Of a DNA stretch of 64,000 bases, positions 26,245-59,620 are shown in pieces (within the stretch, counting starts at the first letter, position 1; each line of letters opens with the position of its first letter). Source of the DNA: Bacteriovoracaceae bacterium. Its GTDB lineage: Bacteria > Bdellovibrionota > Bacteriovoracia > Bacteriovoracales > Bacteriovoracaceae. A model generated the notes under the pieces. That model saw nothing but the letters and a program-made list of their open reading frames with translations, did no database searches and was not told the origin of the DNA. The position numbers were made by a program, and so were the translations under genes. The DNA lies in assembly GCA_016784965.1 (NCBI GenBank), contig JADHTQ010000003.1, positions 86,598-150,597 of the forward strand, in the 5' to 3' direction.

Positions 26245-26281
26245 ACACTAAATTAAATTGAGCGGTAGTGTAATAGTAAAA

Positions 26282-26776
26282 ATGAAAGATAAACAAGCCA
26301 AATTGCTTAGCAAACAAGAGAGTAGGAGAGCTTTTCGAGAAGTGCTTACTTCTAAATACAGTATAATGGCTCTTATTTTTGGTGCATTTATCTTTTCTTT
26401 AACCGTCATTAACACTAATAAGGCGAAAAAAATTAAAGCTTTTTTATCAGAGAGAGATATAGTAGACCATTCATTTGTACATGGTCGCTTTCGGTTGAGC
26501 CGGTTTCAAGCACAACCAGGAAACACTACTCCTAAGGTGAATATTATAAACCCTTATAAAACTGTTAAGAGCAAGGCTGGTGGCAAGCGTTCATGCATAT
26601 GCCCTATAGACCGTGTTGTATATGTTGATATGCAGACTTGCAAAAGTGCTTGTCCTGTCTGTCGCAAGCACCTTTTTGGCGCTGTATACGGGGGGGATGG
26701 TGCTATGAAACCAAAGATTACAACGAAGATTGCGGGTGTCAAGAAGCCAAATAAGCTACCTCAGGTAAAATTATAA
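26282..26776 (+). CDS. membrane-anchored CxC/CxxC protein, first gene of the magnetosome cluster
   Basis: 164 aa from the ATG at 26282; a TTG at 26258 would add 8 residues, and neither has a strong Shine-Dalgarno. One transmembrane helix at about residues 25-43 (YSIMALIFGAFIFSLTVI) is followed by a soluble domain with CICPIDR, then QTCKSACPVC. Six cysteines in CxC/CxxC spacing suggest a metal site (Zn, Fe or Fe-S). I do not recognise the family. Position at the head of the mam operon and shared anchor-plus-CxxC design with four later genes suggest a magnetosome redox or iron-binding role (inference). Confidence 0.6.
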   Translation: MKDKQAKLLSKQESRRAFREVLTSKYSIMALIFGAFIFSLTVINTNKAKKIKAFLSERDIVDHSFVHGRFRLSRFQAQPGNTTPKVNIINPYKTVKSKAGGKRSCICPIDRVVYVDMQTCKSACPVCRKHLFGAVYGGDGAMKPKITTKIAGVKKPNKLPQVKL

Positions 26777-26790
26777 AACAGGAAACGATA

Positions 26791-27138
26791 ATGATGAACA
26801 AGAGAACATTCCATCTTCTTTTTGGCCTAACGATGCTTGGCTTAGGAATATTTGGAATAATCGATGAATGGTACAATGTGATAGACTTTGTACTCGGCTT
26901 GTCTGCAATTGTATTAACATTGTGGGGTACTGTTCTCATTGCAGTTGGTGGAAAAAGAAGTGGATTTTCCAGAACAATTTATGTATCGATAGGATTGTTT
27001 TTATTTTGTTTTGGTGTGTTTGGCATTTATGATGAGTGGGGAACCGTTCGCGACCTAGGGATTGGCATTATACCTGTTCTCAGTTTGATGTTTGGGACTT
27101 TAGCATTAGTTGCAGGTGTAAATCGTTTAAAAAACTAA
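26791..27138 (+). CDS. tandem-duplicated MamI-like membrane protein
   Basis: 115 aa, four transmembrane helices made of two copies of one unit: GLGIFGIIDEW at about 17-27 and CFGVFGIYDEW at about 74-84, each followed by a second helix ending in a Gly-rich G-x-x-x-x turn. The same unit is the whole of the next gene. It matches the MamI pattern (short hydrophobic helix, Gly-aromatic loop with Trp, second helix). MamI is needed for invagination of the magnetosome membrane in Magnetospirillum. It starts 14 nt after the previous stop. Confidence 0.65.
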   Translation: MMNKRTFHLLFGLTMLGLGIFGIIDEWYNVIDFVLGLSAIVLTLWGTVLIAVGGKRSGFSRTIYVSIGLFLFCFGVFGIYDEWGTVRDLGIGIIPVLSLMFGTLALVAGVNRLKN

Positions 27139-27161
27139 TTTAAACAAACGAAGGTACTAAT

Positions 27162-27347
27162 ATGGCACAGATAGTAACAGGTCTTTTTTTAATTGCATTT
27201 GGTTTGTGGGGAGTATTCGATGCTTGGCACTACATGGTTGATGCTTTAAAAGGTGGGTCTGGCATAGTTATGGCCATTGTAGGTGTGTTGTCACTAGCAT
27301 TGGCGACAAAAAGTTCAGAGAAATTTGTTATTGGAAGAGATGAGTAA
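27162..27347 (+). CDS. mamI: MamI-like two-helix magnetosome protein
   Basis: 61 aa with two transmembrane helices joined by FGLWGVFDAWHYMVDALKGG, then an ALATK end. Size, topology and the Trp-containing loop fit MamI, a small integral protein required for magnetosome vesicle formation. It is clearly the single-unit relative of the preceding duplicated protein. AAGG lies just ahead of the ATG. Confidence rests on pattern and context, as MamI is too short for secure identification by eye. Confidence 0.65.
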   Translation: MAQIVTGLFLIAFGLWGVFDAWHYMVDALKGGSGIVMAIVGVLSLALATKSSEKFVIGRDE

Positions 27348-27366
27348 TATTTAAGGAGCAACTTTA

Positions 27367-28050
27367 ATGAATAATAAAACAGCAGCAAGTCAAGAAAAGA
27401 TGATTCCAGATTTCGAATATGTTTTGCATTCAGCATTATTAATGATTGGAAAATGGTTTCACAGCCTTCTGACTTGGTATGAAAATCTATTTACTCTGAG
27501 TTCTACGGATCAGTTTAAAGTGTATGCCAACTTGGTAAATCATTATAGAAAAAAAGGAAAGCTTGATGAGGCTGTGGCAATGGCGAAAAAAGCTCTAAAA
27601 ACTGCCGGAGCTCAGGACAAGGCTGCTGCCCAAAGAAACTTAGCAGACCTCTTTTTTGCTATTAGTGATTTTACGAACGCAAAAACTAATTATGAGATTT
27701 GTTTAAAGAAAAACAGTGCTGACTCCAAAATTAAAGTTAGATTGGCAATAATTTGCAGGAAAAATGGCGACATAGAAGGCGCGATTAAGTTTTTTGAAGA
27801 AGCATTAGAGCTCAATGCAAAAGACCACGAAACTATGTATAACGTTGCCCAACTGTACGATAAGGCAAATAAAAGAGAAGAAGCTGTTGCTATGATTCAA
27901 AAGGCACTTGCTTTAAGCCCAAATTGTATTAGTTATCACCAGTTCTTGGGATTCCTATATGAGTCTTTAGACAAGCATCAAGACGCTCTTCCCCACTTTA
28001 AAAAGGTAATGGAATTAGAACATGCTGCTGTAGCTAACGTGGTTCAATAG
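27367..28050 (+). CDS. mamA: MamA, TPR magnetosome scaffold protein
   Basis: 227 aa. About five tetratricopeptide repeats fill residues 50-220 (YANLVNHYRKKGKLDEAVAM, GDIEGAIKFFEEALELNAKD, LGFLYESLDKHQDALPHFKK). MamA self-assembles on the cytosolic face of magnetosomes and is among the most conserved mam genes. TPR alone is not diagnostic; the identification rests on length and on mamQ and mamB following it. GGAGC precedes the start. Confidence 0.82.
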   Translation: MNNKTAASQEKMIPDFEYVLHSALLMIGKWFHSLLTWYENLFTLSSTDQFKVYANLVNHYRKKGKLDEAVAMAKKALKTAGAQDKAAAQRNLADLFFAISDFTNAKTNYEICLKKNSADSKIKVRLAIICRKNGDIEGAIKFFEEALELNAKDHETMYNVAQLYDKANKREEAVAMIQKALALSPNCISYHQFLGFLYESLDKHQDALPHFKKVMELEHAAVANVVQ

Positions 28051-28061
28051 GGGAGACTCAG

Positions 28062-28790
28062 GTGACCGGAAAAACAAGCCACATTATTGAACAAATATAT
28101 CGTGAGGACATGTTCACTGACGATTTCAACATTGCTCAAAGAGCTTGGATTTCTCTTACCAAAAAGATTAAGAATATATTTCCTCCAGATGCCGATAGAT
28201 ACTTAAGTCATGCTCGCAAACTCATTCTCCTAGGTATCGTAGGTTGCTCATTTTTTATTTTTGGAGGCATTTTTTATTACAACCAGTTTTATGTTAAATA
28301 TCAAGACATGCTAGCAGCAGAGAGTAAGATTCACACCTTTTTACAGAAAAGGCGCAATGTTCAATTAAATATTTCCAAGATTGTTTTTAATTACTCACAA
28401 CATGAAAGTAGTGTGTTTAAAGGGGTCGTTGCTTCTCGCCAGGCTTTTGCAACAGATGGAATGGCTAGTTTGGTTGACAAATTAAAGGACGCAAAGCAAA
28501 TACCAGATGGTGCTTCATTAGAAGGATTTATGTCGAAGATTTTTGCACTTTCTGAGCAATACCCTGATTTGAAATTAAATACGAACCTTTTAAAGTTTAT
28601 TGATGTGATTTTAGCTGTAGAAAAGAATGTAGCCGATGCAAGGGTCGAATTTAACCTTTGTCTGAATTCTTATTCAACGGTGCTTAAGACTTTTCCAGGA
28701 AATGTTTACAATCTTTTCTTTGGATTTAAATCTAAGCCATATTATAGGGCAGCTGAAAATGCTAGAGATTTTAAAATCATCACTTACTGA
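28062..28790 (+). CDS. mamQ: MamQ, LemA-like magnetosome protein
   Basis: 242 aa, GTG start with GGGGAG ahead. A cytosolic N-terminus (about 45 residues) is followed by one transmembrane helix (about 54-74) and a helical LemA-like domain containing RRNVQLNISKIVFNYSQHE, which corresponds to the conserved MamQ/LemA core. MamQ is required for magnetosome membrane formation. It sits directly after mamA, as in the classical mamAB operon. Its last 32 nt overlap the next gene. Confidence 0.85.
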   Translation: MTGKTSHIIEQIYREDMFTDDFNIAQRAWISLTKKIKNIFPPDADRYLSHARKLILLGIVGCSFFIFGGIFYYNQFYVKYQDMLAAESKIHTFLQKRRNVQLNISKIVFNYSQHESSVFKGVVASRQAFATDGMASLVDKLKDAKQIPDGASLEGFMSKIFALSEQYPDLKLNTNLLKFIDVILAVEKNVADARVEFNLCLNSYSTVLKTFPGNVYNLFFGFKSKPYYRAAENARDFKIITY

Positions 28791-29247
28791 GCTTAAATTA
28801 AAGGCCAAGGAACACTATGTCTTTCTAGGCATGTGCTTGATTTCGGCTTGGATTGTACTGTATTCCGACTATAACTTGGCAACAGGAACCGGTAACTTAA
28901 GTTTGATGTTGTTTTTTTTAGCAAATACGTATGTACCAGCTAAGTTTTTGAGAGAGGCATTTAATTTAAAAAATGTTTCAACTTTTTTTATAACATATCT
29001 GCGTTGGCACTGTAATTTAAACATTATTGCCTTTTTAGTGGCTTGCTTACATGCATGGCTCACTAACTGGGTGAATTTCTGGCTGCAGGTATCTCTAATA
29101 TTGATGGGATGGTTAACGTTTGGGGGCTTTTTATTAAAATTTAAATATAACGCAATGGTTAAGAAGTGGGTTTATTTTTTACATGGCCAGCTCTTTTTAT
29201 TTGTTATATTGGTCTATGCTCTGCTAAAAGGCCATTATGTTTTTTAA
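28759..29247 (+). CDS. four-helix membrane protein with paired histidines, YedZ/ferric-reductase-like
   Basis: 162 aa from the ATG at 28759. Four to five transmembrane helices. Histidines lie in two pairs: RWH and CLH, 14 residues apart, and YFLH and KGH, 17 residues apart. The second pair follows a KKW, as in the heme-b helices of YedZ/MsrQ and ferric-reductase domains. MamZ of Magnetospirillum carries such a domain fused to a transporter; here it would stand alone. It occupies the place of mamR between mamQ and mamB. Heme binding and an iron-redox role are inference; the longer frame from 28702 is rejected. Confidence 0.55.
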   Translation: MLEILKSSLTELKLKAKEHYVFLGMCLISAWIVLYSDYNLATGTGNLSLMLFFLANTYVPAKFLREAFNLKNVSTFFITYLRWHCNLNIIAFLVACLHAWLTNWVNFWLQVSLILMGWLTFGGFLLKFKYNAMVKKWVYFLHGQLFLFVILVYALLKGHYVF

Positions 29248-29273
29248 AAACGATTAATTTGGAGGTTAGTTGT

Positions 29274-29381
29274 ATGGTGGGAATAGTAATGCTTATTGTG
29301 GTAGTTGTCGGGGGCGGGTATTTGTACTCTCGTATTGCAAAACTTGAAAAAGAAATAGAAACAGAGAAAGAGACAAGATAA
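29274..29381 (+). CDS. 35-aa single-helix membrane microprotein
   Basis: ATG at 29274 has a perfect GGAGG upstream. The peptide is one hydrophobic helix (VGIVMLIVVVVGGGYLYS) and a charged Lys/Glu coil (KLEKEIETEKETR). It fills the gap between the YedZ-like gene and mamB with only 14 nt to the mamB GTG, so it is probably translated in the operon. No family recognised; a small assembly or adaptor protein is one possibility. Confidence 0.6.
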   Translation: MVGIVMLIVVVVGGGYLYSRIAKLEKEIETEKETR

Positions 29382-29395
29382 TTTAAGGAAATGAT

Positions 29396-30307: not shown

Positions 30308-30328
30308 AAAGAAATTGGGGTTAAGCAA

Positions 30329-31972
30329 GTGAAAGATAATAGTTCTGGTACTGACTTTTGTATGAAACAATTTAAGCCCATTGTGGGTGTTGTTTTAGTC
30401 CTACTTTTGATCGTTGTCGGTTGGACTGTGTACATAGAGTTAGGTTATGGCCAAAGAGGAAGCACAACAACCCTGCACGCAAGAGGCGCAACTAGAGTAG
30501 CAGCATTTAAAATACCCATTAGGATAAACATGTTGATGCATCACGTGTTCAGGGGAAACAATTGTTACCAGTGCCATAAATTGGTTGGTGCACCAGAAAT
30601 GCCCCCTATGCCGGCAAGACCAATATTGCCTAAGGCGCCCATGACTCACCCATTTTGGGGTAAGTGTACAAACTGCCATAAGATACTCGGAGCACCTGCA
30701 GCTGGGGGCAAGCCAGTTGGTTTTGTACCAGTATTTGGAGCGGGCAAAATACCCATCCAAATAGGCCAACTTGTACTTCATCCAAATTACGGAAATGACT
30801 GTATGATGTGCCATATGATCCCCGGTGGAGATCAGAAGCCAGCAATACCAGCTGATCCTATTCAATGGACTATACCGCTACCACATCCATTTTGGGGAGC
30901 ATGCAAAAAGTGTCATGCAATAATAAAAACACCAGCTCCAGGAGCAGCACCAGTAGCGTTTATAAATTCTAAAATTGGTAAAAATTACTTCGGAGCCGAT
31001 TTGCTGACAGTTGATAGGTTACTTGCAGAACAGTTTAATCTTCCCTCCAATAACGGAGTCTTGGTTAACAGTCTCAAACCGCAATCCTATGCAGCGACTG
31101 TTGGGTTTTTGGAAGGAGACATTATTACTGATGTGAATAATATCCCCGTCACAACTCTGGCAGGCTTCGCGCGAGAAATTGATAAGTATATTCCCGGAGA
31201 TAGAATTAATGTAAAGGTAATTCGAAATAAGGGCCGGACAAAAAATTTAAAATTTAAAATGAAAGCGTGGGCTCCAACGGTTGGCGATCCTACAAATAAA
31301 ATTGGGATTTTAGCTACTGGTAAAACCTTGAATTCACCCGTAGCTTTTAGTCTGGTTAATGCGCCCTATATGATTGTCTATGAGTTAGATATTGATAACT
31401 TTTATGCTGTGGCGAACCCTTTTAAGGGTATAGCTAACAACAAAGTATCTAGCTGGATTGTTACAAAAAAAGTAGGCAGTATAGTTACAGGCAATATTAA
31501 TCAATCAGACTTTATAAATCTTCAAAGAAATAATGTTACGGTATATAACTCGGTTTTTGGTACTGCTGCAGATGCAGTTGCTTTGTATCGCCAAGGAGAT
31601 TTGATAGCGAAGAAGGGACCACAGGTAGTGGCCTTTAATCGGAACATAATCAACATTTTGGGTATACCTTCAAATTATGCAGATCCTGCTTCTAATATTG
31701 CACCATCACTAGAAACTGCTCAGTATTTAATTAAAGTGGAGCTGGATCAAAATATGTATGAGGTCATAATCAACCCATATTTTAACCAACCTAAAGTAAA
31801 TGGGTTAATGATGGCCCACTTTCTTGTTGATAATGAGTTTGATGCATTGATTACCAATAAAATAGGCAACAGTACTTTAGTTGAGCTAAAGAAGTTGAAT
31901 GTACAGGTAATAAATGGAGTTAATAGCACTGTTAGTGATGCCATTTTAAATTTTCAAAATGGTAAACTGTAG
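30329..31972 (+). CDS. tetra-magnetochrome / PDZ / double NifX-like membrane protein
   Basis: 547 aa, GTG start. One helix (about 18-36), then four heme-binding CXXCH motifs at C79, C113, C158 and C192. The second and fourth are preceded by HPFWG, and the block 62-120 is repeated at 141-200, so a two-heme magnetochrome module was duplicated. Residues about 222-310 are a PDZ domain. Two NifX/NafY-like domains follow (about 325-426 and 433-547; NAPYMIVYELDIDNFYAVANP and SIVTGNINQSDF in the first). MamP, MamE, MamT and MamX carry magnetochromes, but I know of no such arrangement. It should be a c-type cytochrome facing the magnetosome lumen or periplasm. Likely role: iron oxidation balance (inference). 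Confidence 0.8.
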   Translation: MKDNSSGTDFCMKQFKPIVGVVLVLLLIVVGWTVYIELGYGQRGSTTTLHARGATRVAAFKIPIRINMLMHHVFRGNNCYQCHKLVGAPEMPPMPARPILPKAPMTHPFWGKCTNCHKILGAPAAGGKPVGFVPVFGAGKIPIQIGQLVLHPNYGNDCMMCHMIPGGDQKPAIPADPIQWTIPLPHPFWGACKKCHAIIKTPAPGAAPVAFINSKIGKNYFGADLLTVDRLLAEQFNLPSNNGVLVNSLKPQSYAATVGFLEGDIITDVNNIPVTTLAGFAREIDKYIPGDRINVKVIRNKGRTKNLKFKMKAWAPTVGDPTNKIGILATGKTLNSPVAFSLVNAPYMIVYELDIDNFYAVANPFKGIANNKVSSWIVTKKVGSIVTGNINQSDFINLQRNNVTVYNSVFGTAADAVALYRQGDLIAKKGPQVVAFNRNIINILGIPSNYADPASNIAPSLETAQYLIKVELDQNMYEVIINPYFNQPKVNGLMMAHFLVDNEFDALITNKIGNSTLVELKKLNVQVINGVNSTVSDAILNFQNGKL

Positions 31973-31983
31973 GAGAGTTAAGC

Positions 31984-33681: not shown

Positions 33682-34629
33682 ATGATGTTTAGAGTTTTTA
33701 TTGGATTAATAATTATTTTTTCAGGAGTTACTAGGGCACAAATCGATCCGTTAGGGGCTTTACAAGAAAGACAAAATGATGCCATCGCGCGGGCCAAATA
33801 CAGTGTAGTGCATATTAAGGCGTATGATAAAAGAACTCCAGGTCTTGAAAATATAGGTTCGGGAGTGATCGTCCACCAACAAGGGTTCATTGTAACCAAT
33901 GACCATGTGGTAAATGGGTTTGATACAATTGAGGTAACAATTAATCGTGGGAGAAAACACGTAATATACACTGCCTCGATTCTTAAGTCTGATCCTAAGG
34001 CCGACTTGTCGCTAATTAAAGTCAATGGAAGTGTTTTGCTATACCCAATACAGCTTCCCAAGAACAAACTGTTAGATATAGGGGCGACTGTTTTTGTAAT
34101 TGGAAGTCCTTTTGGATTAGATCATACTGTGACAAAAGGAATTGTAAGTAAACGAAGAAGGTCAGTGGTGATAGGTGGCATTGTATACAGTGAGATGATT
34201 CAAACTGATGCAAATATTAATCAGGGGAACTCTGGTGGAGCTGTTATTAATATGAATGGTGAAATAATTGGGATCGCTAGTGCGATATACTCAGAAACCA
34301 CTAATTCATCGGGCATTGGGTTTGCCATACCTATTGCAAGAGTAAAAGATTTTTATCAAGCCGAAGTACAGCAACATAAGAAAAAATTCTTGAAGAAGCT
34401 GCGAACTAAAGATCTAACGCTGCCATTTAAGCGTATTTTAGATAATCAAATATATTTACCAATGGTTGATAGAAGCTCTAAGCAGTTTCAAATGGAAAAA
34501 CAAAGACGATCATACCATCTGTCATCAGCACTTCTAGTTAAGTATACAACTATTTTAGTTTTAATTACTTTTGCAATCATGGTAGCAATTATCTTGTTTC
34601 TAAGAAGAAAAACGGTGGTGCTGGCATGA
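33682..34629 (+). CDS. mamE: MamE-type HtrA serine protease with intact triad, no PDZ
   Basis: 315 aa. A signal or anchor helix comes first, then a trypsin-like domain with His75 (VTNDHVVNG), Asp108 (PKADLS) and Ser184 (QGNSGG), so catalysis is expected. QTDANINQGNSGGAVI is the family signature. A second helix sits at the C-terminus (about 286-308) instead of PDZ or magnetochrome domains. In Magnetospirillum, MamE fuses protease, magnetochromes and PDZ; here those modules are on separate adjacent genes. It would process magnetosome proteins to trigger crystal maturation. Start ATGATG lies immediately after the previous stop. Confidence 0.8.
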   Translation: MMFRVFIGLIIIFSGVTRAQIDPLGALQERQNDAIARAKYSVVHIKAYDKRTPGLENIGSGVIVHQQGFIVTNDHVVNGFDTIEVTINRGRKHVIYTASILKSDPKADLSLIKVNGSVLLYPIQLPKNKLLDIGATVFVIGSPFGLDHTVTKGIVSKRRRSVVIGGIVYSEMIQTDANINQGNSGGAVINMNGEIIGIASAIYSETTNSSGIGFAIPIARVKDFYQAEVQQHKKKFLKKLRTKDLTLPFKRILDNQIYLPMVDRSSKQFQMEKQRRSYHLSSALLVKYTTILVLITFAIMVAIILFLRRKTVVLA

Positions 34630-35468
34630 GTAAGCGGATAATTATTGTAGTAGTAGCGATCTTTTTTATAGGTGTTTTTTACTTTGGTTATAATTCACAT
34701 AAGAGTGTAATGATACCTCTGCCAAATACCAATTGGAAGACAAAAAGCAGAACACTTCGTAGGTTTCAAAATCTTCCACCTGCTAACCTGACAAAAGACC
34801 AGGTTATGATCAACGAAACTATCCAACATAGTACTAATAAACTTTTGGTAAAAGTTAGACCTTGTGTCGTGAGTGTAATCAGTTATAGTGCCGCACCCTT
34901 GAGACATAATGGTGAATTTTTTGGTAAGATTTTAGACCCTCACAAAGTGGGCAACAAGTTAATAAGTTCTGGCATTATTGTTGGAAAAAGTGGGCATATC
35001 ATAACTGCCTATGACGCAGTTCCGGCCAATCAAATTGAAGTTAAGCTATTTAGACATGTACCTAACGTGTTTAAAGCTCAAATCCAAAAGGTAGATAAAA
35101 ACCTTCATCTAGCATTGCTAAAAATTGTAGACCCTGGCAACTTCCCAGTTTGTAATCTGGGTAACTCCAGTGTACTAAATGTAGGCGACCTAGTATATGC
35201 AGTTGGCAGCCCTTACGGTTTTTCTCAAACGGTCACCTCTGGAATAATCAGTAGCAATCGTAAGAAAATGAATGTTCACGGTGATATCTTTCAAAAATTG
35301 ATCCAGACTGATGCGGCCATAAACAAGGGAAACAATGGAGGTCCTCTAGTCAATATAAGGGGAGAAGTTATTGGGATTAATGCGATTGTTTATTCGACAA
35401 ATGCCGGAAATGCAGGTATTAACTTTGCTATACCTGTAAACGATGTGAAGACTTTACTTCAAAAGTAG
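34626..35468 (+). CDS. mamO: MamO-type degenerate HtrA pseudoprotease
   Basis: 280 aa, overlapping the previous gene in an ATGA. One N-terminal helix, then a trypsin fold aligned to its neighbour, but all three catalytic positions are changed: His to Asp130 (ITAYDAV), Asp to His161 (NLHLAL), Ser to Asn237 (NKGNNGG). Loss of the triad with retention of the fold is the hallmark of MamO, where the domain acts by binding metal and activating MamE. The TauE-like permease normally fused to MamO is missing here and is encoded at 40976. Name assigned by this logic, not by alignment. Confidence 0.75.
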   Translation: MSKRIIIVVVAIFFIGVFYFGYNSHKSVMIPLPNTNWKTKSRTLRRFQNLPPANLTKDQVMINETIQHSTNKLLVKVRPCVVSVISYSAAPLRHNGEFFGKILDPHKVGNKLISSGIIVGKSGHIITAYDAVPANQIEVKLFRHVPNVFKAQIQKVDKNLHLALLKIVDPGNFPVCNLGNSSVLNVGDLVYAVGSPYGFSQTVTSGIISSNRKKMNVHGDIFQKLIQTDAAINKGNNGGPLVNIRGEVIGINAIVYSTNAGNAGINFAIPVNDVKTLLQK

Positions 35469-35481
35469 GAGAGGAGGGGCA

Positions 35482-35856
35482 ATGGAGCGGAAGCATTTTT
35501 ATTTTGCTGGTATATTGCTAATCATAATGTTTCTAGTGTTGATTTTTGACTATATGAAACATCATGCACCAGTTAACCAAGGGAGACACCACGCTGTGGT
35601 GCCAGCGCAAAACCCTAATGCTAGACGAGTGAAACTTACCACTCCAGCTACGACAAAATATATTGCCGGAGGGCAGTACATGTGTATGCGATGCTCTCAC
35701 ACTGGAATTCCAAAGTTTAATGGGACTAAAAGTCCCCGATGTTCCATGTGTGGTGGATTTATGCAAACAATTCGGCTGAGTTCAGTAGACGCTGCAAAAA
35801 TTTGCGGCAACTTTCATTGTCCTCATGCAAAAACGGGTGGAAGATTAATTAAATAA
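35482..35856 (+). CDS. membrane-anchored zinc-ribbon-like CxxC protein
   Basis: 124 aa with an N-terminal helix (about 7-23), a His-rich linker (HHAPVNQGRHHAVV) and a ribbon YMCMRCSHTGIPKF followed by PRCSMCGGFM, then another CGNFHCPHAK. The Y-x-C-x2-C-x-H-x-G ... PRC-x2-C pattern recurs in the next protein, so they are paralogs. It may bind Zn or Fe. Part of the magnetosome operon (13 nt spacing). Function unknown. Confidence 0.65.
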   Translation: MERKHFYFAGILLIIMFLVLIFDYMKHHAPVNQGRHHAVVPAQNPNARRVKLTTPATTKYIAGGQYMCMRCSHTGIPKFNGTKSPRCSMCGGFMQTIRLSSVDAAKICGNFHCPHAKTGGRLIK

Positions 35857-35871
35857 TGAAGATAATTTGTG

Positions 35872-36426
35872 ATGAATAAAAACAGCAATTATGTTAATGG
35901 TAGCGATGAAAAGTCTTCACTTATAGTGATTGCTTCTTTTTTTGTGATTACGCTACTAGTAGGCGCTATTTTTCATCACGATAAAAAGAAGATTAATGTA
36001 GATAAAATGAAGATGCCGGCCCAACAGGCAAAAAAAATGCGGAGAATGGCCATTACATTAAAAAAACATATTGCTCGCAATACACCTCCTCAAGCCAAGC
36101 TTAAAGTTAAGCCTCTTATAAAGTCGTTAGCTCTGCTACATTGTGCTATGGATAAAAAAAATTATGTTCCCATGTGTTCTAGATGCAATGTGCCCTTTAC
36201 TAAGGTGGGAGTGTCCCTTCATTGTCCGGTCTGCAAGCAGGAAGCATTATTTATGTGTCCCAATAATATACAAAATAAAATGGTTCTTTGGAATGTGCAC
36301 TCTCATAGGAAAAGGCATGCAAATGCAACATATGTATGTCCTGTATGTGCACATAGTGGACCTCCGCGTTGGGATAGTAGAGGGGCACCAAGATGTCCAT
36401 ATTGTAGAAACATAATGAAGCTTTAA
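35872..36426 (+). CDS. membrane-anchored double-ribbon CxxC protein
   Basis: 184 aa. A GTG at 35869 is an equally possible start. Helix at about 16-36, basic linker, then CSRC and CPVC, a lone Cys (MCPNN) and a final YVCPVCAHSGPPRW with PRCPYC. The last ribbon matches that of the preceding protein. The spacing is rubredoxin/zinc-ribbon-like. Iron or zinc binding is likely, and a role in periplasmic or lumenal iron handling is inference. Confidence 0.65.
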   Translation: MNKNSNYVNGSDEKSSLIVIASFFVITLLVGAIFHHDKKKINVDKMKMPAQQAKKMRRMAITLKKHIARNTPPQAKLKVKPLIKSLALLHCAMDKKNYVPMCSRCNVPFTKVGVSLHCPVCKQEALFMCPNNIQNKMVLWNVHSHRKRHANATYVCPVCAHSGPPRWDSRGAPRCPYCRNIMKL

Positions 36427-36444
36427 GTTAAGTGGGGTAAAGTT

Positions 36445-36672
36445 ATGGCCAAAATATTGTCTTTTTTAATACTTGCTGCGCTAGGGATAGTTTTTGTTAT
36501 CCAAAATAGCGAACATGTAGTCATTCAACTGGTAATTGGAAACCCCATACGAATACGTTTAATCTTTTTACTGTTGGTGTTTTTTGCCATTGGTTACTTG
36601 TTGGCGAAATTTGAAGGACTACATAGAGAAAGAAGATTTAAAAAGAAGCTTGCTAAGATACACAATAAGTGA
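36445..36672 (+). CDS. mamL: MamL/LapA-like two-helix membrane protein
   Basis: 75 aa. Helix, then a short strand-rich segment (NSEHVVIQLVIGNPIRI), helix, and a strongly basic amphipathic tail (HRERRFKKKLAKIHNK). This is the LapA/DUF1049 layout, and MamL of Magnetospirillum shares it, including the basic tail thought to bend membranes. It lies immediately before mamM and mamN, as mamL does in the classical operon, which supports the name. Ordinary LapA is the alternative. Confidence 0.7.
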   Translation: MAKILSFLILAALGIVFVIQNSEHVVIQLVIGNPIRIRLIFLLLVFFAIGYLLAKFEGLHRERRFKKKLAKIHNK

Positions 36673-36683
36673 GGACCTAACTG

Positions 36684-37565
36684 ATGCATTGTGAAAATAA
36701 AAATCGTGATAAATGTGTTCGGTGTCGTGAGCATGCTGGAACGGCACAGCTCGGTGGTACAATATTTTTAACTGTTTTAAAAATTGTAGTGGGTATTTTG
36801 GGTAACTCAAAAGGGTTACTAGCAGATGCAATTCACTCAGCAGCAAACATTGTAACCTCCGCTGCCATTTTTATTAGTAAAAAATGGGGAGACAAACCCG
36901 CAGATAAAGAACACCCATTTGGGCATGGTAAACTTGAATTTGTTACCTCTTCTATGGTTAGTGGTTTGCTCGTTGTGAGTACACTTTATATAATTTGGCA
37001 CTCTCTAGATGAAATACTTCATGGTCACCCCGGTGAGATGCCTCACTGGACTGTTGTAGTTGTGGCCATAATTTCGATTATTGTTAACGAAGCTCTGTTT
37101 CAATACTTACAATGCGTTGGTAATGAATTTAAAAGTAGTAGTATTTTAACCAACTCTTGGGCGATACGTTCAGATAGTTTCTCTTCTATTGCGGTTATAG
37201 CAGGGGTTATAGCCACAAGGTTGGGCTTTACTCACTCTGATGGGTATGTGGCATTAGCGGTTGCTAGTATTATCGTTTATGTATGTTTTAAACTATTCTT
37301 AGACTCCATTATGCATTTGATGGATAAGTCAATTCCACTAGATCAATTAAATGATATTCGTGCCACAATTAACGATGTTGTGGGAGATAGATTGCAAAGT
37401 TTGTCTGCCCGTCTAAATGGTAGAAAAATATGGGTGAACGCAACTCTTAGTTTGGGTACAAATAGCAAAATTAATGTACTAACTGATTATGATGAAAAAA
37501 TCCAAGAGGGTGTCAGGAAGAATCATAAGCAGGTAGACAAGGTACTTGTGGATTTTAAATTATGA
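36684..37565 (+). CDS. mamM: MamM-type CDF transporter with altered metal site
   Basis: 293 aa, six helices and a cytosolic domain. N-terminal CVRC and the KEHPFGHGKLEF block resemble MamM. The transport site looks weakened: helix 2 has H51 but Asn55 where Asp is usual (IHSAAN), and helix 5 has Ala160 with D164 (AIRSD), so two of four ligand positions are non-coordinating. In Magnetospirillum MamM is needed for MamB stability and iron transport, so a partly structural role is possible. Its stop overlaps mamN in an ATGA. Confidence 0.8.
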   Translation: MHCENKNRDKCVRCREHAGTAQLGGTIFLTVLKIVVGILGNSKGLLADAIHSAANIVTSAAIFISKKWGDKPADKEHPFGHGKLEFVTSSMVSGLLVVSTLYIIWHSLDEILHGHPGEMPHWTVVVVAIISIIVNEALFQYLQCVGNEFKSSSILTNSWAIRSDSFSSIAVIAGVIATRLGFTHSDGYVALAVASIIVYVCFKLFLDSIMHLMDKSIPLDQLNDIRATINDVVGDRLQSLSARLNGRKIWVNATLSLGTNSKINVLTDYDEKIQEGVRKNHKQVDKVLVDFKL

Positions 37566-39004
37566 TGAATGTTGCGACAAAAAAACAAAGTGTTTCATTC
37601 TACTTTGTCTTTAGTGTGCTATGTGTTTGGTGTATTTACACCGTAACCACACCAACATTTTTGCTCAAAACCAATCCATTAAATGGCACTTTAAAGAATA
37701 TTGTTGCCCAAGTAATTTGCCTTAAAATCTTAATCGTTACTTTTGCAACCCTTTACTATCGTCCGACAAAGCGTCTGTTTGTTTTAAGTTTGGGAAGTTT
37801 AGCAATTTTGGCGGTAGGGACATATGTAGGATTTTATAACCTATCTTATGCACTACAAAGCATAGACATTAGCACTCTTTCTTTGCTGTTTGGTATGGGT
37901 TTGATCTCAACTATACTGGCCGCCACAAACTGTTTTAAAGTTGTGACCAACCGTTTAATTGAGATGTTTGGCAAGTATCATTTTGCTTTGTTTGTGATCT
38001 TGGTATTGCTTACATATTTTTTCTCTTTATTCATTAACAATCTGACTACGATGCTTCTGATTTTACCTGTTACCCTTACGCTGGCAGATACACTTAAGTT
38101 GAAGGCGACACCTTTTATTATCGGCCAAATAATTGCCTCAAACCTTGGTGGAGCATCAAGCATGTTAGGTGATTTTCCAAATATGTTAATTGCTTCCAAG
38201 ATGCATATACCTTTTCACCTATTTATTAAACACATGATGCCAATTTGTTTAATAAATTTAGGAGTGATGTTGTTGTATTTTTACAGGAAAGTAGATTTTG
38301 GCGACAGTGCAACGACAGAAGATAAATTGGTGCAACTAACTCTACCAAATGCTTCCATAACAAACTCTAAAGCATTAAATCTTTCCATCCTAGTCCTTAT
38401 TACGATGATTGGTTTTTTTATGTTTTCTCGAATTAGTCCGGGGATAGTCGCTCTTGTTGGTGCCGGTATTCTTTTAGCATTTTCTAGTATTGATAAAGAA
38501 GAAATTATTGCGAGAGTGAATTATACGGACTTGGGTTTTTTTCTTCTGCTTTTTGTATTGATTGGTGGCGTTGAGTCATCAGGTTTACTGGAGACAGTCT
38601 CTGATGGCGTCTTATATGTATCTGGTGGCAACGAGTTTGTACGACTATTGATTTTAATGTGGGGCGCCAGCTTTGTGACTATGTTTTTTAATGCAGGGCC
38701 CACGACAATTTTGTTTTTACCGATGTTTTTGGGGGTTAGTGGACTACAACCACATAATTTAATATTTTGGGCATTATCTCTGGGAATATGTGCGGGCTCA
38801 AGTGGTAGCTTAAATGGTGCAACTGCAGGCCCTGTATCTCTAACATTAATGGAAAAATTTTACCGCAACGATAGCAAAACAGATAAGCGGGAACATTTAA
38901 CGTATGCGTCTTATTCGATTATAGGATTTCCTATAATGTACCTGCATTTGTTGATCTCAACTTTATATGTTTTAATACTGTACTGGATGAGTTTTAAATA
39001 TTAG
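37562..39004 (+). CDS. mamN: MamN, ion-transporter-superfamily membrane protein
   Basis: 480 aa with about 12 helices. Resembles ArsB/NhaD-type permeases: NNLTTMLLILPVTLTLAD and FFNAGPTTILFLPM are the paired half-helix motifs, and NLGGASSMLGDFPNMLIAS is the NhaD-like loop. MamN is proposed to export protons released by magnetite formation. Its position directly after mamL-mamM matches the mamAB operon. Substrate here is not shown by sequence. Confidence 0.85.
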   Translation: MMNVATKKQSVSFYFVFSVLCVWCIYTVTTPTFLLKTNPLNGTLKNIVAQVICLKILIVTFATLYYRPTKRLFVLSLGSLAILAVGTYVGFYNLSYALQSIDISTLSLLFGMGLISTILAATNCFKVVTNRLIEMFGKYHFALFVILVLLTYFFSLFINNLTTMLLILPVTLTLADTLKLKATPFIIGQIIASNLGGASSMLGDFPNMLIASKMHIPFHLFIKHMMPICLINLGVMLLYFYRKVDFGDSATTEDKLVQLTLPNASITNSKALNLSILVLITMIGFFMFSRISPGIVALVGAGILLAFSSIDKEEIIARVNYTDLGFFLLLFVLIGGVESSGLLETVSDGVLYVSGGNEFVRLLILMWGASFVTMFFNAGPTTILFLPMFLGVSGLQPHNLIFWALSLGICAGSSGSLNGATAGPVSLTLMEKFYRNDSKTDKREHLTYASYSIIGFPIMYLHLLISTLYVLILYWMSFKY

Positions 39005-39033
39005 AATACCAAAGATCTAGGATTGAGAGGTTT

Positions 39034-39393
39034 ATGAAACAAAACATGTGTAAGAATTGTTCTGTAAAGGGATATAGCTTTGAGCTATGTACAGCTCATC
39101 GTATTCATATGGGTGGTAAGGGAAAATGTAGTAATTTTCAACGCAAAAAAAGTTACAAAGATCACTTAAAGCTCAATACCGTCGTTTATGCAGGAGCATC
39201 TGTTTTGGGCGTGACTGCCGGTATCGTTGCTGCACCCGTTTTGGGATTGCCAGTAATAGCTCACGCTGCATTTTTTAAAGTTGGAGCAGGGTTGTTGGGC
39301 GGTAGTATGTCAATAATGGAAAATAAGAAAAAAGACACGGAAAAAGTAATAGAAGGAGAAGGAGATGAACATGGAAACGAAAGCGAAGAATAA
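39034..39393 (+). CDS. Cys-rich N-terminus plus Gly-rich membrane hairpin protein
   Basis: 119 aa. The N-terminus has CKNC, a further CTAH and KCSNF, then two Gly/Ala-rich helices (about 48-70 and 74-90; GASVLGVTAGIVAAP, KVGAGLLGGS) and an acidic tail (GEGDEHGNESEE). The helix pair resembles that of the next protein and, loosely, MamC/Mms13, which shape crystals with a loop between two Gly-rich helices. Acidic tails are common in crystal-associated proteins. Function is inference. Confidence 0.55.
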   Translation: MKQNMCKNCSVKGYSFELCTAHRIHMGGKGKCSNFQRKKSYKDHLKLNTVVYAGASVLGVTAGIVAAPVLGLPVIAHAAFFKVGAGLLGGSMSIMENKKKDTEKVIEGEGDEHGNESEE

Positions 39394-39676
39394 GAGTTAT
39401 CTGGATGAAATTAAAAAATTGGGCGACAAAAGTGCTAAAATTGGTTCAAAACAAATTAGAATGAGAACCGTGTTCAAACTTGGAGCATTAGGTACTCTAG
39501 GTGCAGGCGTTGGTGTATTGGCCGGTATTAGTGGTTCAATTGCTGCTGCTGCAGTTTTAGAATCTGTGATTCCATCTATCTTAATCACTAAGACAGCAGG
39601 TATTGTAGGCGGTGCTGCGGGTGTCTTGGCAGGTATTGGTGATATCCCTAAACACGATGTAAAAGAAATGGCATGA
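39371..39676 (+). CDS. Gly-rich two-helix membrane protein, MamC-like in style
   Basis: 101 aa from the ATG at 39371 (GGAG six bases ahead); another ATG 6 nt upstream is possible. Overlaps the previous gene's end. A basic N-terminus is followed by two helices (LGALGTLGAGVGVLAG and GIVGGAAGVLAGIG), with a spacer of about 25 residues. Compare MamC, a 12-kDa two-helix magnetosome protein. Similarity is in composition and topology only. Confidence 0.55.
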   Translation: METKAKNKSYLDEIKKLGDKSAKIGSKQIRMRTVFKLGALGTLGAGVGVLAGISGSIAAAAVLESVIPSILITKTAGIVGGAAGVLAGIGDIPKHDVKEMA

Positions 39677-39684
39677 GGGGCATA

Positions 39685-39915
39685 ATGCAACATTTATCAT
39701 GTGGTTTTTGTAATGGCGCAATGGAAACTCGTGAAATACCAGTTTATAATAAGCACATAGGAATTTCCCTAGTTATCCTTGGATTATTATTCTCTATCAC
39801 ACTCGTTGGAATTTTTATGGGAGTGATTTTATTAGGGTGTGGTGTTTACATTCTTGTATCCAAAAAAAATGTCTGGATTTGCAATGAATGTCATACGTTG
39901 CTAAATAAAGCTTAA
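39685..39915 (+). CDS. split zinc-ribbon membrane protein
   Basis: 76 aa from ATG 39685, with GAGGGG just ahead; an ATG at 39673 overlapping the previous stop is the alternative. CGFC near the N-terminus, two helices (about 25-60) and CNEC near the C-terminus, so the two CxxC knuckles meet on the same side of the membrane to form one metal site. No family assigned. Operon member. Confidence 0.55.
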   Translation: MQHLSCGFCNGAMETREIPVYNKHIGISLVILGLLFSITLVGIFMGVILLGCGVYILVSKKNVWICNECHTLLNKA

Positions 39916-39947
39916 ATAAAAAAAGCGCAGACCAAAAAGGAATTGGC

Positions 39948-40475
39948 ATGGGTATCGGAAAAGCGGTTGAGGCAATTGCCAAGTTTGCAGGCAAAAGAAC
40001 GTATGATATACATCGAATGGCCATCAAGACAGTTAGCATTCTCCAGGTAGCAAAACCCAGGATACGAAGTACAGCTGGGTTGAACCGCAAATATCAAAGT
40101 TTGGGAAGAGCTGTCTTACCTTTTTTGCGCAAAAATCATGCATTTAATGATAAAGAACTTCAAGATATTGTAGTTTCTATTGTTGAAATGGATGATAGTT
40201 TGCATGTTGCTGAACAGGCACAAATTAGCTCCAAACAGAAGGAGACAAAGCCAACTTCATTTAGTAGTAAAGACCAAAGCAAGGCAAAGCCTGCAGATAA
40301 AGTTGTGTCGTCTAAACCTAGCAAAAATTCAACACAACAAGTATCTGAACAAGTCAAACCATCTGAGGAACCAATAGAAGTTGGCCCCGTTGCTCCCATA
40401 CAATGGGAAAAATCAGATAAAGGTAGCAAGCCCAAGATCCAAGATGATAAAGAGCATGATAATAAAACATTATAG
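39948..40475 (+). CDS. hypothetical protein with disordered tail
   Basis: 175 aa, no helix predicted to span membranes. Residues 1-85 are a basic, probably helical domain ([20 protein letters not shown]); residues 85-175 are low-complexity Ser/Lys/Pro/Gln, disordered. AAGGA precedes the ATG. It sits inside the magnetosome operon, so a cytosolic adaptor role is conceivable. Not recognised. Confidence 0.55.
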
Positions 40476-40489
40476 GGCGGCTGCATAAA

Positions 40490-40963
40490 ATGACGACTAC
40501 AGACAACGTTACGGAGATCCCCCAAACAAAAATTACTCCATCTCCAAAAGAGGAAGTGGTTCAATCTCTTAGGGAAAAAGCGTCTCCAGTGTTAAAGGAG
40601 AAGGTTGCTCCTCCTCCAAGTGAAAAAGCAGCACCTGAATTAAAGGAAAAAGTTGTTCCTCCTCCAAGCGAGAAAGCAACTCCAGCTCTCAGGGAGAAAA
40701 TTGCTCCACCCGCAAAGGAGAAAAAAGCGCCTCCACCACCAAAGAAAAAAAGAAAAAAGAAAAAGGCCATAATTGATAGAAAAGAGTGTTTGGGTTGCAA
40801 AAACTGCTTTTTAAATTGTCGTAAAAAAGTTATTAGTTATCACAAAACATTGTTTGGTGGTTACTGTGAAGTAGATACCTCAAAATGTGTCGGATGTGGT
40901 CAATGTGTAATTATGTGCATGAACTTGTGCATAACTGTGTCTGAAGAAAATAATCAAGATTGA
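40490..40963 (+). CDS. 2x[4Fe-4S] ferredoxin with Lys/Pro repeat arm
   Basis: 157 aa. Residues 31-78 are three 16-residue repeats (consensus A-x-P-x-L-K-E-K-V-x-P-P-P-S-E-K), followed by a Pro/Lys stretch (KKKRKKKK) and a C-terminal ferredoxin with [11 protein letters not shown] and [11 protein letters not shown], both CxxCxxCxxxC. Each should bind a 4Fe-4S cluster. No signal peptide, so cytosolic; the basic arm may contact membranes or an acidic partner. Ferredoxin-like genes occur in some deltaproteobacterial magnetosome clusters. Electron partner unknown. Confidence 0.75.
40580..40723 (+). repeat. three 48-bp tandem repeats inside the ferredoxin gene
   Basis: Units at 40580-40627, 40628-40675 and 40676-40723 each encode a 16-aa Lys/Glu/Pro repeat. 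They have diverged at the nucleotide level, so the expansion is not recent. Confidence 0.75.
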
Positions 40964-40975
40964 TATAGGTATTAA

Positions 40976-41776
40976 ATGTTATTTTTACAATATTTTTTTG
41001 TTTCTTTGTTTGGTCTATTAGTAGGTACATTCGGAACAATGTTAGGAGTTGGCGGAGGATTTATCCACGTTCCATTTCTAATGATCCTGTTTAACTTTAT
41101 ACCTCAAGACGCAATCGGGACATCTATTGGTGTAATCTTTTTTAATACTTTGGCCGGAAGTACAATTTATTTTTTTCAGAAGCGTTTAAATATGTATGTG
41201 GCCACCAGGCTGGCACTTTATGCTATTCCTGGAGCTACAATTGGTCCTTTTGTTGTTCAACATTATACAAAATCATTTTTTTGTACCATGTTGAGTGTGC
41301 TGCTTGTACTAGTTTCATATTATCTTTTTTTCAAACAAGGAAAGGTCACGGCCGATACCAAGAAGGAATCAGAAGTACACCTAACTGGTGATGACAAAGA
41401 GGATGCCAAGCGCTACAACCTCAGGCTAGGTCAAATAGGTACTTTGTTTATCGGCTTTTTATCTAATCTATTTGGTATTGGTGGCGGTATTATCCACGTG
41501 CCGTTTATGGTTATGGTAATGAAAATGCCGCTACACTTAGTACTAGGTACATCTCACCTTGTTTTATGTGTTTCTTCGTTCATTGGAATGTGTGTATTTT
41601 TCTATTTGGGCAATATTCAGGTAGACTTCATGATGCCTATTGCCTTGGGCTCAATTATTGGGGCGAGAATAGGTGCAGAACTGTCTGGACGCATCCCCGC
41701 CGATGTAATCAGAAAAATATTGGCCCTAACTTTAGCATTTGTTGCATTAAGGCTTATGTTAACGAGTATGCTTTAA
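40976..41776 (+). CDS. TauE/SafE-family permease, candidate detached C-terminal half of MamO
   Basis: 266 aa, about eight helices in two inverted halves. Each half carries the family glycine motif with a following H-V-P-F: MLGVGGGFIHVPF and LFGIGGGIIHVPF. In Magnetospirillum MamO, a pseudoprotease is fused to a TauE-like domain. Here the pseudoprotease (34626) and this permease are separate genes of the same operon. Substrate unknown; anion or organosulfur export is known for other TauE proteins. Last gene of the cluster. Confidence 0.8.
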   Translation: MLFLQYFFVSLFGLLVGTFGTMLGVGGGFIHVPFLMILFNFIPQDAIGTSIGVIFFNTLAGSTIYFFQKRLNMYVATRLALYAIPGATIGPFVVQHYTKSFFCTMLSVLLVLVSYYLFFKQGKVTADTKKESEVHLTGDDKEDAKRYNLRLGQIGTLFIGFLSNLFGIGGGIIHVPFMVMVMKMPLHLVLGTSHLVLCVSSFIGMCVFFYLGNIQVDFMMPIALGSIIGARIGAELSGRIPADVIRKILALTLAFVALRLMLTSML

Positions 41777-42121: not shown

Positions 42122-42265
42122 TTGAAGCCTTTAATACTAACAATTATGGTATTTAGCACCCAACTTCTATGCTGCTCAAGGCAAGCAAGCGCCAATGCTG
42201 TTGCGGCAAATAAAATAAAAGGACTAACTTACTTAGTAAAGGGAGAAGGAAAAAATGGAAATTAA
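42122..42265 (+). CDS. 47-aa exported microprotein overlapping feoA
   Basis: TTG start with GGAG eight bases ahead. The N-terminus KPLILTIMVFSTQLLCCSRQ followed by ASANA looks like a cleavable Sec signal, or a lipoprotein signal given the Cys pair. The stop overlaps the feoA start by 11 nt, so it may be coupled to feoAB. The non-ATG start keeps confidence low; it may simply be leader sequence. Confidence 0.35.
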   Translation: MKPLILTIMVFSTQLLCCSRQASANAVAANKIKGLTYLVKGEGKNGN

Positions 42266-42491: not shown

Positions 42492-42495
42492 AGCT

Positions 42496-45791: not shown

Positions 45792-45833
45792 TTTTATCTC
45801 CAGTTCTTAGCTTAATAGCTTTTATAAAGTTTA

Positions 45834-47813: not shown

Positions 47814-47833
47814 AAGGTCTCCTTCGCTGAGAA

Positions 47834-59618: not shown

Positions 59619-59620
59619 TC

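What the first reader, a model, noticed from the sequence alone, without database searches (positions are those of the whole stretch)
26282..41776. A previously unflagged magnetosome gene cluster with mixed classical and unknown parts
Seen: about 20 tightly packed genes including CDF pairs, TPR, LemA-like, HtrA-like and MamN-type proteins. Established: this set (A, B, E, I, L, M, N, O, Q) is the core of known magnetosome operons. The orders A-Q-x-B and L-M-N are those of mamAB. Inference: the host is, or recently was, magnetotactic. About half of the genes fit no named Mam protein I know.
Basis: partly seen in the sequence, partly recalled or inferred. Interest (0 to 1): 0.97.

Follow-up and report, generated by a model that had tools for sequence, protein, structure and literature searches.

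The report
Bdellovibrionota magnetosome genes with extra actins
This stretch holds a tightly packed, intact set of the genes that other bacteria use to build magnetosomes (membrane-wrapped magnetic crystals that serve as a compass), in a bacterium that groups with the predatory phylum Bdellovibrionota; no gene for MamK, the usual actin that lines the crystals up, was found in its genome, which carries the likely alternative Mad28 plus two more genes predicted to make actin-like proteins, and these likely help line up the crystals.

Summary
The finding is real. Window 26282-41776 is 23 intact, same-strand, tightly packed genes: double MamI, MamI, MamA, MamQ, MamB, FmpB, FmpA, MamE protease, MamO-like pseudoprotease, MamL, MamM, MamN, Mad-type genes and TauE. 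MamB and MamM group with those of known clusters. Most of the "unknown half" has homologues in Desulfobacterota clusters; two or three genes are lineage-only. The iron genes at 45147-47849 probably belong too. The host groups with Bdellovibrionota, where such clusters have been published since 2020, so the kind is known. New, and outside the window: the chain-building half sits on another contig (C102) with Mad23/25/26-like genes, an AAA protein, Mad28 and two further actin-like genes; no MamK was found. One of these ("actin-A", predicted ParM fold) is in 8 of 368 phylum genomes, the same 8 that carry cluster markers. The paper texts and passages I read do not name it. Likely reading: a magnetite-forming relative whose chain is organised by Mad28 plus a ParM-like pair instead of MamK. 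Magnetism, mineral and the actins' role are untested. The actin-A family also occurs in bacteria not known to be magnetotactic, so chance linkage remains possible.

The parts
26258..26776 (+). First gene, 172 aa (ATG at 26282 likelier start), CxxC motif; lineage-only
   Evidence: No Pfam hit, only weak NCBIfam hits; homologues found only in Bdellovibrionota-type clusters
26791..27138 (+). Fused double MamI (115 aa)
   Evidence: NF040963 68 bits in two stretches; halves 34% identical
27162..27347 (+). MamI (61 aa)
   Evidence: NF040963 45 bits
27367..28050 (+). MamA (TPR)
   Evidence: NF040959 122 bits, best NCBIfam hit
28062..28790 (+). MamQ (LemA family)
   Evidence: NF040966 68 bits, only NCBIfam hit; Pfam LemA 89 bits
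28702..29247 (+). Membrane protein at the Mad2 position
   Evidence: Homologues in Desulfobacteraceae clusters L055, L111 (6e-56); order mamQ-mad2-mamB as in RS-1/FSS-1 (PMC4287615, PMC7951924)
29166..29381 (+). Small protein, start uncertain
   Evidence: Homologues in L046 and, weakly, L048, L061, L055, L111
29396..30307 (+). MamB, CDF iron transporter
   Evidence: NF033616 211 bits against 182 for the CDF superfamily; beside SI034_bin15 MamB 100/99
30329..31972 (+). FmpB-like: four CXXCH haem motifs, PDZ, NifX-type domains
   Evidence: 4 CXXCH here and in SI034_bin15, 2 in L047, L048, L061, L105 and L055
31984..33681 (+). FmpA/MamE-Cter: three PDZ plus NifX-type domain
33682..34629 (+). MamE-type serine protease, H-D-S triad intact
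   Evidence: intact in all 6 rows, 5 genomes
34626..35468 (+). MamO/MamEO-like pseudoprotease, triad lost (D, H, N)
   Evidence: first His and Ser lost in all 6 rows, 6 genomes
35482..35856 (+). CxxC (zinc-ribbon-like) protein at the Mad4 position
   Evidence: Homologues in 9 Desulfobacterota-type loci outside the profile
35869..36426 (+). Second CxxC (zinc-ribbon-like) protein
   Evidence: Homologues in 9 Desulfobacterota-type loci outside the profile
36445..36672 (+). MamL
   Evidence: Profile from relatives hits 57 of 78 named loci; LapA_dom 25 bits, under its cut-off
36684..37565 (+). MamM, CDF transporter
   Evidence: NF033615 206 bits against 178 for the CDF superfamily; in the MamM group
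37562..39004 (+). MamN
   Evidence: NF040989 305 bits
39034..39393 (+). Membrane protein at the Mad7 position
   Evidence: Homologues in 11 loci outside the profile, all with Desulfobacterota-type titles
39365..39676 (+). Membrane protein at the Mad8 position
   Evidence: Homologues in 12 loci outside the profile
39673..39915 (+). Small CxxC membrane protein
   Evidence: Homologues in 11 loci outside the Bdellovibrionota-type group
39948..40475 (+). Lineage-only charged protein
   Evidence: Found only in L046, L048, L049, L105
40490..40963 (+). Ferredoxin-like protein at the Mad9 position
   Evidence: Weak 4Fe-4S model hits; homologues in 11 Desulfobacterota-type loci
40976..41776 (+). Stand-alone TauE/SafE transporter (equivalent of MamO C-terminus / RS-1 TauE)
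   Evidence: MamO model 60 bits over its C-terminus; homologues in 47 of 78 loci
42255..44739 (+). FeoA and FeoB, ferrous iron uptake; membership in the cluster uncertain
   Evidence: not next to tauE in SI034_bin15
45147..45791 (-). DtxR/MntR-type regulator (Mad30 candidate)
   Evidence: NF047407 67 bits; paired with FeoB in G061, G157, G326, G327 and in L055, L111, L071, L060, L052
45834..47849 (-). FeoB-like transporter (Mad17 candidate)
   Evidence: TIGR00437 265 bits; 39-40% identical to the FeoB beside DtxR in those four genomes

Best explanation
Window 26282-41776 is an intact magnetosome gene set of the RS-1/BW-1 (Desulfobacterota) type in a bacterium that groups with the Bdellovibrionota, and it likely builds magnetite crystals in membrane pockets that are probably lined up, with no MamK found, by Mad28 and two more predicted actin-like proteins encoded on another contig of the same genome. 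Shown by sequence: gene set, order, open frames, grouping of MamB/MamM, intact protease beside a pseudoprotease, tetrahaem FmpB, and co-occurrence of actin-A with the cluster. Inferred step by step: MamI, MamL, MamQ and MamB would shape the membrane; MamB and MamM would load iron, and MamN would remove protons; the MamE protease and its dead partner would switch on mineral growth; FmpB, FmpA and the ferredoxin would set the Fe(II)/Fe(III) ratio; TauE would move an anion; the FeoB/DtxR pair would supply and sense iron. Then Mad23/25/26-type proteins, Mad28 and the actin-A/actin-B pair would gather crystals into a chain.
For: Gene content and packing. MamB and MamM group with Bdellovibrionota rows of named clusters, 100/99. 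Matching gene order over the stretch held in SI034_bin15, nN3bin31, nN3bin16, nKLKbin12 and nXXbin1; nXX_bin1 is named in PMC7602337 and the other n... bins share its code style (partly recalled). FG-1, by name the MAG whose population's magnetosomes were imaged (PMC13200544), encodes actin-A (P0173). Chain module on C102. Mad28 in 8 of 368 phylum genomes at E<=1e-10. Actin-A over 600 bits in the same 8. FmpA over 300 bits in 7 of those 8; the eighth, G059, has MamN at 290 bits and a contig that ends inside the operon. Actin-A lies on a contig with mam genes in 5 of the 8 (G059, G060, G061, G157, G327). Actin-A is predicted to fold like ParM.
Against: No Mam protein reaches its NCBIfam equivalog cut-off, and the general Do/HtrA model beats MamE for three genes. 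The CDF tree had no panel of known ordinary CDFs. No phenotype: magnetism, mineral type and motility are untested. In three of the eight cluster genomes (G000, G056, G326) actin-A lies on a contig apart from FmpA. The actin-A family occurs in Syntrophales, Acidobacteriota, Elusimicrobiota, Wallbacteria and others, and rows I labelled magnetotactic are not one clade (at least 3 changes), so it is not magnetosome-specific. Actin-B rests on a profile match (94.5% probability, 146 columns); its own model failed (mean pLDDT 39). Magnetite rather than greigite is by analogy with PMC13200544. The MAG has 3.8% estimated contamination.
Confidence: 0.85

Rival explanations
1. The cluster is intact but silent or relictual: the host carries it without making magnetosomes.
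For: Silent clusters exist in a phototroph (PMC9938234, title and start of abstract in the listing). The operon and the chain module lie on different contigs here.
Against: All 23 frames are open, the protease triad is intact, and order is largely kept across four genera of the family (in nN3bin31 the mamI-mad2 block is inverted).
Confidence: 0.1
2. Ordinary CDF, HtrA, LemA and TPR genes that only resemble a magnetosome operon.
For: All scores lie below NCBIfam equivalog cut-offs; Do/HtrA outscores MamE for three genes; Pfam LemA (89 bits) is not outscored by MamQ (68).
Against: Mam models outscore the other NCBIfam models for MamA, MamB, MamM and MamN; MamI, MamL, MCR and FmpA/B types co-occur in order; tree.
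Confidence: 0.01
3. The mineral is greigite, not magnetite.
For: BW-1 chains are magnetite or greigite (PMC10653835 passage) and many genes are shared with it.
Against: PMC13200544 found no greigite cluster in Bdellovibrionota and imaged magnetite in FG cells.
Confidence: 0.08
4. Actin-A, actin-B and their small neighbours do another job (plasmid or chromosome partition, cell shape) and merely travel with the cluster.
For: Actin-A relatives occur in many bacteria not known to be magnetotactic; the predicted fold is nearest to partition ParMs.
Against: 8 of 8 cluster genomes carry it and 0 of 360 others do in this phylum (one 27-bit match to the charged tail not counted); it shares a contig with mam genes in 5 of 8; nXXbin1 has it beside its Mad28.
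Confidence: 0.4

Closest known systems
Solidesulfovibrio magneticus RS-1 / Fundidesulfovibrio FSS-1 magnetosome cluster (PMC4287615, PMC7951924, passages)
   Same: Order mamQ-mad2-mamB-FmpB-FmpA-MamE proteins, then mad genes, mamL-mamM-mad7-mad8-mad9; stand-alone TauE; Mad17/Mad30; Mad23/25/26/28/29
   Different: mamN present (not in the FSS-1 list); no gene at the mad6 place; no MamK found; double MamI; two extra actin-like genes
Desulfamplus magnetovallimortis BW-1 cluster (L056, L228, L229)
   Same: FmpA, MamE pair, MamL, MamM, MamN and Mad-type genes in order; HEAT protein, AAA protein, Mad28, ParA-like gene nearby
   Different: BW-1 has MamK (507 bits) and a 734-aa MamE-type protein; no actin-A/actin-B lies between AAA and Mad28 in the stretch mapped (the whole BW-1 genome was not searched for actin-A)
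Bdellovibrionota clusters of Bergot et al. 2026 (PMC13200544) and Lin et al. 2020 (PMC7602337)
   Same: Phylum, no mamK, mad28 and mad23/25/30 present, mamAB operon like BW-1
   Different: Here the operon and chain module lie on separate contigs; tetrahaem FmpB; the extra actins are not named in the text I read (abstract, Results parts 1-2 of 3, Discussion, passages)

Membership tests
Magnetosome gene cluster (mamAB type) | mamA, B, E, I, M, O, P, Q conserved in most magnetotactic bacteria (PMC12713370 passage, which also lists mamK) | tested here: met
   A, B, I, M, Q by model; E and O functions split over several genes, where general Do/HtrA models score higher; P only as the PDZ/magnetochrome FmpB-FmpA pair
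Magnetosome gene cluster (mamAB type) | MamB and MamM group with MamB and MamM of known clusters | tested here: met
   116 rows; no panel of known ordinary CDFs was included
Magnetosome gene cluster (mamAB type) | NCBIfam equivalog cut-offs for Mam proteins | tested here: not met
   All below cut-off; MamN also stays below it in all 368 genomes of the phylum
Magnetosome gene cluster (mamAB type) | MamK | tested here: not met
   Best NF040964 hit in G000 is MreB, 76 bits; none over 78 bits in G056, G059, G060, G061 either; absence is reported as typical of this phylum (PMC13200544)
Magnetosome gene cluster (mamAB type) | Magnetosomes seen in cells | not testable with these tools
   No sample
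Bdellovibrionota-type cluster | mad28 and mad23/25-type genes present | tested here: met
   On contig C102, not in the window; Mad25/26 by place and coiled-coil make-up
Bdellovibrionota-type cluster | No greigite cluster | tested here: inconclusive
   Second MamN-like hit on C49 is a lone NhaD-like gene; no genome-wide MamB search was run
Mad28 (C102:44262-45482) | Phosphate-2 motif SxGxG instead of DxGxG; kinship with BW-1 Mad28 | tested here: met
   SMGAG here; 10 of 11 rows keep S; same Pfam family PF25216 as the BW-1 gene in its cluster. Motif from PMC10653835; the BW-1 gene identified by place, size and motif, not by accession
ParM-type actin (actin-A, C102:40653-42146) | Actin fold nearest ParM; conserved phosphate and adenosine motifs | tested here: met
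   Predicted model, pLDDT 83; top PDB hits ParM and archaeal Ta0583; D208, G210, G212 and G323-G325 invariant in 30 rows; no sequence match in PDB
ParM-type actin (actin-B, C102:42694-43815) | Actin fold | tested here: inconclusive
   hhalign to actin-A 94.5%; to Mad28 0.7% and to FmpA (control) 0.4%; model failed; no PDB relative

The most novel reading that the evidence does not exclude
Magnetotactic Bdellovibrionota line up their crystals with a three-actin cytoskeleton: Mad28 (a volactin-family actin) plus a ParM-like pair (actin-A, actin-B) driven by an AAA protein and ParA-type ATPases, recruited from a DNA-partition-like system in place of MamK.
Probability: 0.35. Interest if true: 0.82.

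Novelty: new variant of a known kind. Interest (0 to 1): 0.6.

Why it matters
MamK has been treated as a marker of magnetotaxis, and PMC13200544 asks what replaces it in Bdellovibrionota, proposing Mad28. The census here names further concrete candidates: a ParM-like actin that tracks the magnetosome cluster in 368 genomes of the phylum (8 of 8 against 0 of 360), and its neighbours. It also adds a new genus-level member with a split cluster and a tetrahaem FmpB, and suggests that mamN is missing from some clusters of the phylum.

Tried and rejected
A second magnetosome cluster on contig C49 (second MamN hit) was rejected: it is an NhaD-like gene among unrelated genes. MamN-like hits in G335 and G354 were rejected: no mam neighbours in the 4-kb loci. 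Actin-A as a magnetosome-specific family was rejected. Structure prediction of actin-B failed; the protein database gave only itself and the SI034 relative. The chain genes were first sought on the rest of contig C81 and not found; only MreB matched. One actin-A hit in G186 (27 bits, C-terminal tail only) was not counted. Similarity of gene 25706-26086 to proteins near the actin module of SI034_bin15 was tested and not detected. The actin-like Bbp of giant bacteria (PMC10580974, passages) is described as MamK-like and was not compared further.

Rows left out: one search used 116 rows; of 128 CDF hits, those outside L046-L123, duplicates and lengths outside 240-420 aa were dropped. One search used 55 rows, a chosen part of the non-magnetotactic hits; its magnetotactic label rests partly on record names and accession prefixes (recalled), and unlabelled rows may include magnetotactic ones. 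In one search, L046-L049, L061 and L105 helped build the profiles, so their hits are by construction. In one search, two rows of the active protease are the same genome, and two FmpB rows cut by locus ends (L035, L051) were not used for the haem count. Searches scored only the candidates sharing most words and listed 120.
Full report
What is there. Between 26282 and 41776 lie 23 genes on one strand with gaps of -89 to +32 bases, 99.7% coding. NCBIfam and Pfam give a fused double MamI, MamI, MamA, MamQ, MamB, a magnetochrome/PDZ/NifX protein (FmpB type), a PDZ/NifX protein (FmpA or MamE-Cter type), two trypsin-like proteins, MamM, MamN and a TauE protein that matches the C-terminal part of MamO; MamL comes from a profile built from relatives. 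Nothing reaches an equivalog cut-off. The Mam model is the best NCBIfam hit for MamA, MamQ, MamB, MamM, MamN and MamI; for the PDZ protein and the two trypsin-like proteins the general Do/HtrA model scores higher than MamE, and Pfam LemA (89 bits) scores higher than MamQ (68).

A tree of 116 MamB/MamM-like proteins puts the window's MamB beside SI034_bin15 (100/99) among the Bdellovibrionota-type MamBs, and its MamM beside SI034_bin15 (100/99) within a group that includes Desulfamplus MamM (100/96). The two CDFs are therefore best read as MamB and MamM. No panel of known ordinary CDFs was in the tree, and no tree was made for MamQ or the proteases.

Host. The window lies on contig C81 (bases 86598-150597) of a 4.58-Mb, 97.5%-complete assembly, G000, with 3.8% estimated contamination. 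Base composition is 35-40% G+C throughout the window and the contig carries housekeeping genes, so the cluster belongs to the bin. PMC7602337 (passages) reported Bdellovibrionota among magnetotactic phyla. PMC13200544 (abstract, Results parts 1-2 of 3, Discussion, passages) imaged magnetite chains in Bdellovibrionota FG cells and counted 21 further MAGs with clusters, among them Bacteriovoracia from Saanich Inlet and the Black Sea. This genome may or may not be one of them.

The unnamed half. With profiles built from the family, homologues outside the Bdellovibrionota-type loci, nearly all in Desulfobacterota-type records, were found for 28702 (2 loci), 35482 (9), 35869 (9), 39034 (11), 39365 (12), 39673 (11) and the ferredoxin (11), and widely for TauE, among 78 named loci. 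Maps of L055 and L056 (BW-1) show matching order, as do RS-1 and FSS-1 (PMC4287615 and PMC7951924, passages): mamQ-mad2-mamB-fmpB-fmpA-mamE and mamM-mad7-mad8-mad9. Mad numbers are given by position. Genes 26258 and 39948 were found only in Bdellovibrionota-type clusters; 29166 is weak outside them.

Details that bear on mechanism. Gene 33682 keeps the protease triad H-D-S (all 6 rows, 5 genomes); 34626 has D, H and N instead, and its His and Ser are lost in all 6 rows from 6 genomes. This mirrors the MamE/MamO pair (MamO as pseudoprotease is recalled). The TauE part of MamO is a separate gene here; mutants of a stand-alone TauE in RS-1 are non-magnetic (PMC4287615). FmpB has four CXXCH motifs here and in SI034_bin15 and two in L047, L048, L061, L105 and L055. 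The FeoB/DtxR pair at 45147-47849 also sits near magnetosome genes in G061, G157, G326 and G327 and in five other loci, so the cluster probably extends to 47849.

The missing half. No MamK was found in G000 or the four relatives: the best hit in the four of these genomes with a full MreB is MreB itself, at most 77 bits against a cut-off of 400, while BW-1 gives 507 bits. Genes that follow tauE in SI034_bin15 (HEAT protein, three coiled-coil proteins; two other genes come between) are on contig C102 of G000 at about 57232-60665; PMC12748827 (passages) describes Mad23 as a HEAT protein and Mad25/26 as coiled-coil proteins of chain assembly. Six kilobases upstream on C102 (38859-51133) lie an AAA protein, actin-A (498 aa), a 177-aa protein, actin-B (373 aa), a 140-aa protein, Mad28 (407 aa), a PilZ/ParA protein and a 1471-aa receiver/coiled-coil protein. 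In G061 the same block, the HEAT/coiled-coil genes, FeoB/DtxR and the mam operon share one contig. Actin-A shares a contig with mam genes in 5 of 8 cluster genomes (G059, G060, G061, G157, G327) and not in G000, G056 and G326. G000 thus has a split cluster; in SI034_bin15 the actin block alone is on another contig.

Census. Among 368 genomes of the phylum: Mad28 at E<=1e-10 in 8; actin-A above 600 bits in the same 8, and one 27-bit tail match elsewhere; FmpA above 300 bits in 7 of the same 8, the next at 141 bits or less and covering PDZ parts only; the eighth (G059) has MamN at 290 bits. So actin-A: 8 of 8 cluster genomes, 0 of 360 others. The 8 span three families and seven genera; they are not independent samples.

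Nature of the actins. The Mad28 gene matches Pfam Volactin (250 bits), as does the BW-1 gene in its cluster (269 bits), and keeps the SxGxG motif that PMC10653835 gives for Mad28 (one of 11 rows differs). Actin-A is predicted at pLDDT 83 and matches ParM structures and archaeal Ta0583. Actin-B aligns to actin-A by profile (94.5%), not to Mad28 (0.7%) nor to the control FmpA (0.4%). AAA and Mad28 are also in BW-1, without the pair between them in the stretch mapped; nXXbin1 has AAA, actin-A, actin-B and two Mad28-like genes on one contig; LJ_bin-0460 has AAA and Mad28 without the pair between them on a 10.5-kb contig.

Limits. Actin-A relatives occur in Syntrophales, Acidobacteriota, Elusimicrobiota, Wallbacteria and others at roughly 50-70% identity, and the rows labelled magnetotactic are not one clade. 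The passages of PMC13200544 on actin-like proteins name MamK and Mad28 as the magnetosome actins. Searches for magnetosome with ParM, Mad28, volactin, Mad27/29 and Bacteriovoracia listed no paper whose title or abstract start names these extra actins; figures, supplements and subscription journals were not seen.

Verdict. A genuine magnetosome cluster of a published kind in a genus without another genome in the set searched, with a chain module that differs from the textbook one. The bold part, a ParM-like pair acting in place of MamK, is supported by distribution and neighbourhood and untested by experiment.

Noticed in passing
G000 contig C102, L184 6860-19134 and L167 11233-15959: Actin-like gene block and Mad23/25/26-like genes that belong with the magnetosome system but lie outside the window, about 6 kb apart from each other, with acyl-CoA dehydrogenase and carboxylase-type genes between.
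   Followed up: yes
L195 5500-6918 (G157): In G157 the cluster runs mamL-mamM-Mad7-like with no mamN between; one search lists no MamN match in G157, G326 or G327, so some Bdellovibrionota clusters seem to lack mamN.
   Followed up: partly
window 30329-31972 and L046 2494-4146: FmpB has four CXXCH motifs in this genome and SI034_bin15 but two in the five other complete rows checked: a doubling of the magnetochrome part.
   Followed up: partly
window 25706-26086, - strand; L185 2504-2899 and 16328-16870: Gly/Ala-rich protein divergent from the operon; in SI034_bin15 two proteins flanking the actin block carry GLGLGLG stretches like the LG repeats of Mms6/MamD (recalled). No similarity between the window gene and these was detected.
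   Followed up: partly
L211 and L229 9434-10645 (BW-1), L184 12263-13486: Mad28 matches the Pfam Volactin family (PF25216), named after the Haloferax cell-shape actin; none of the 15 papers listed holds both words.
   Followed up: partly
G000:C49:121312-122469: Second MamN-like hit (207 bits) is an NhaD-like transporter in an unrelated neighbourhood.
   Followed up: yes
L185 18883-19998 (G056): A second, distant actin-A paralogue (35% identical, 239 bits) lies about 9 kb beyond Mad28 in SI034_bin15.
   Followed up: no
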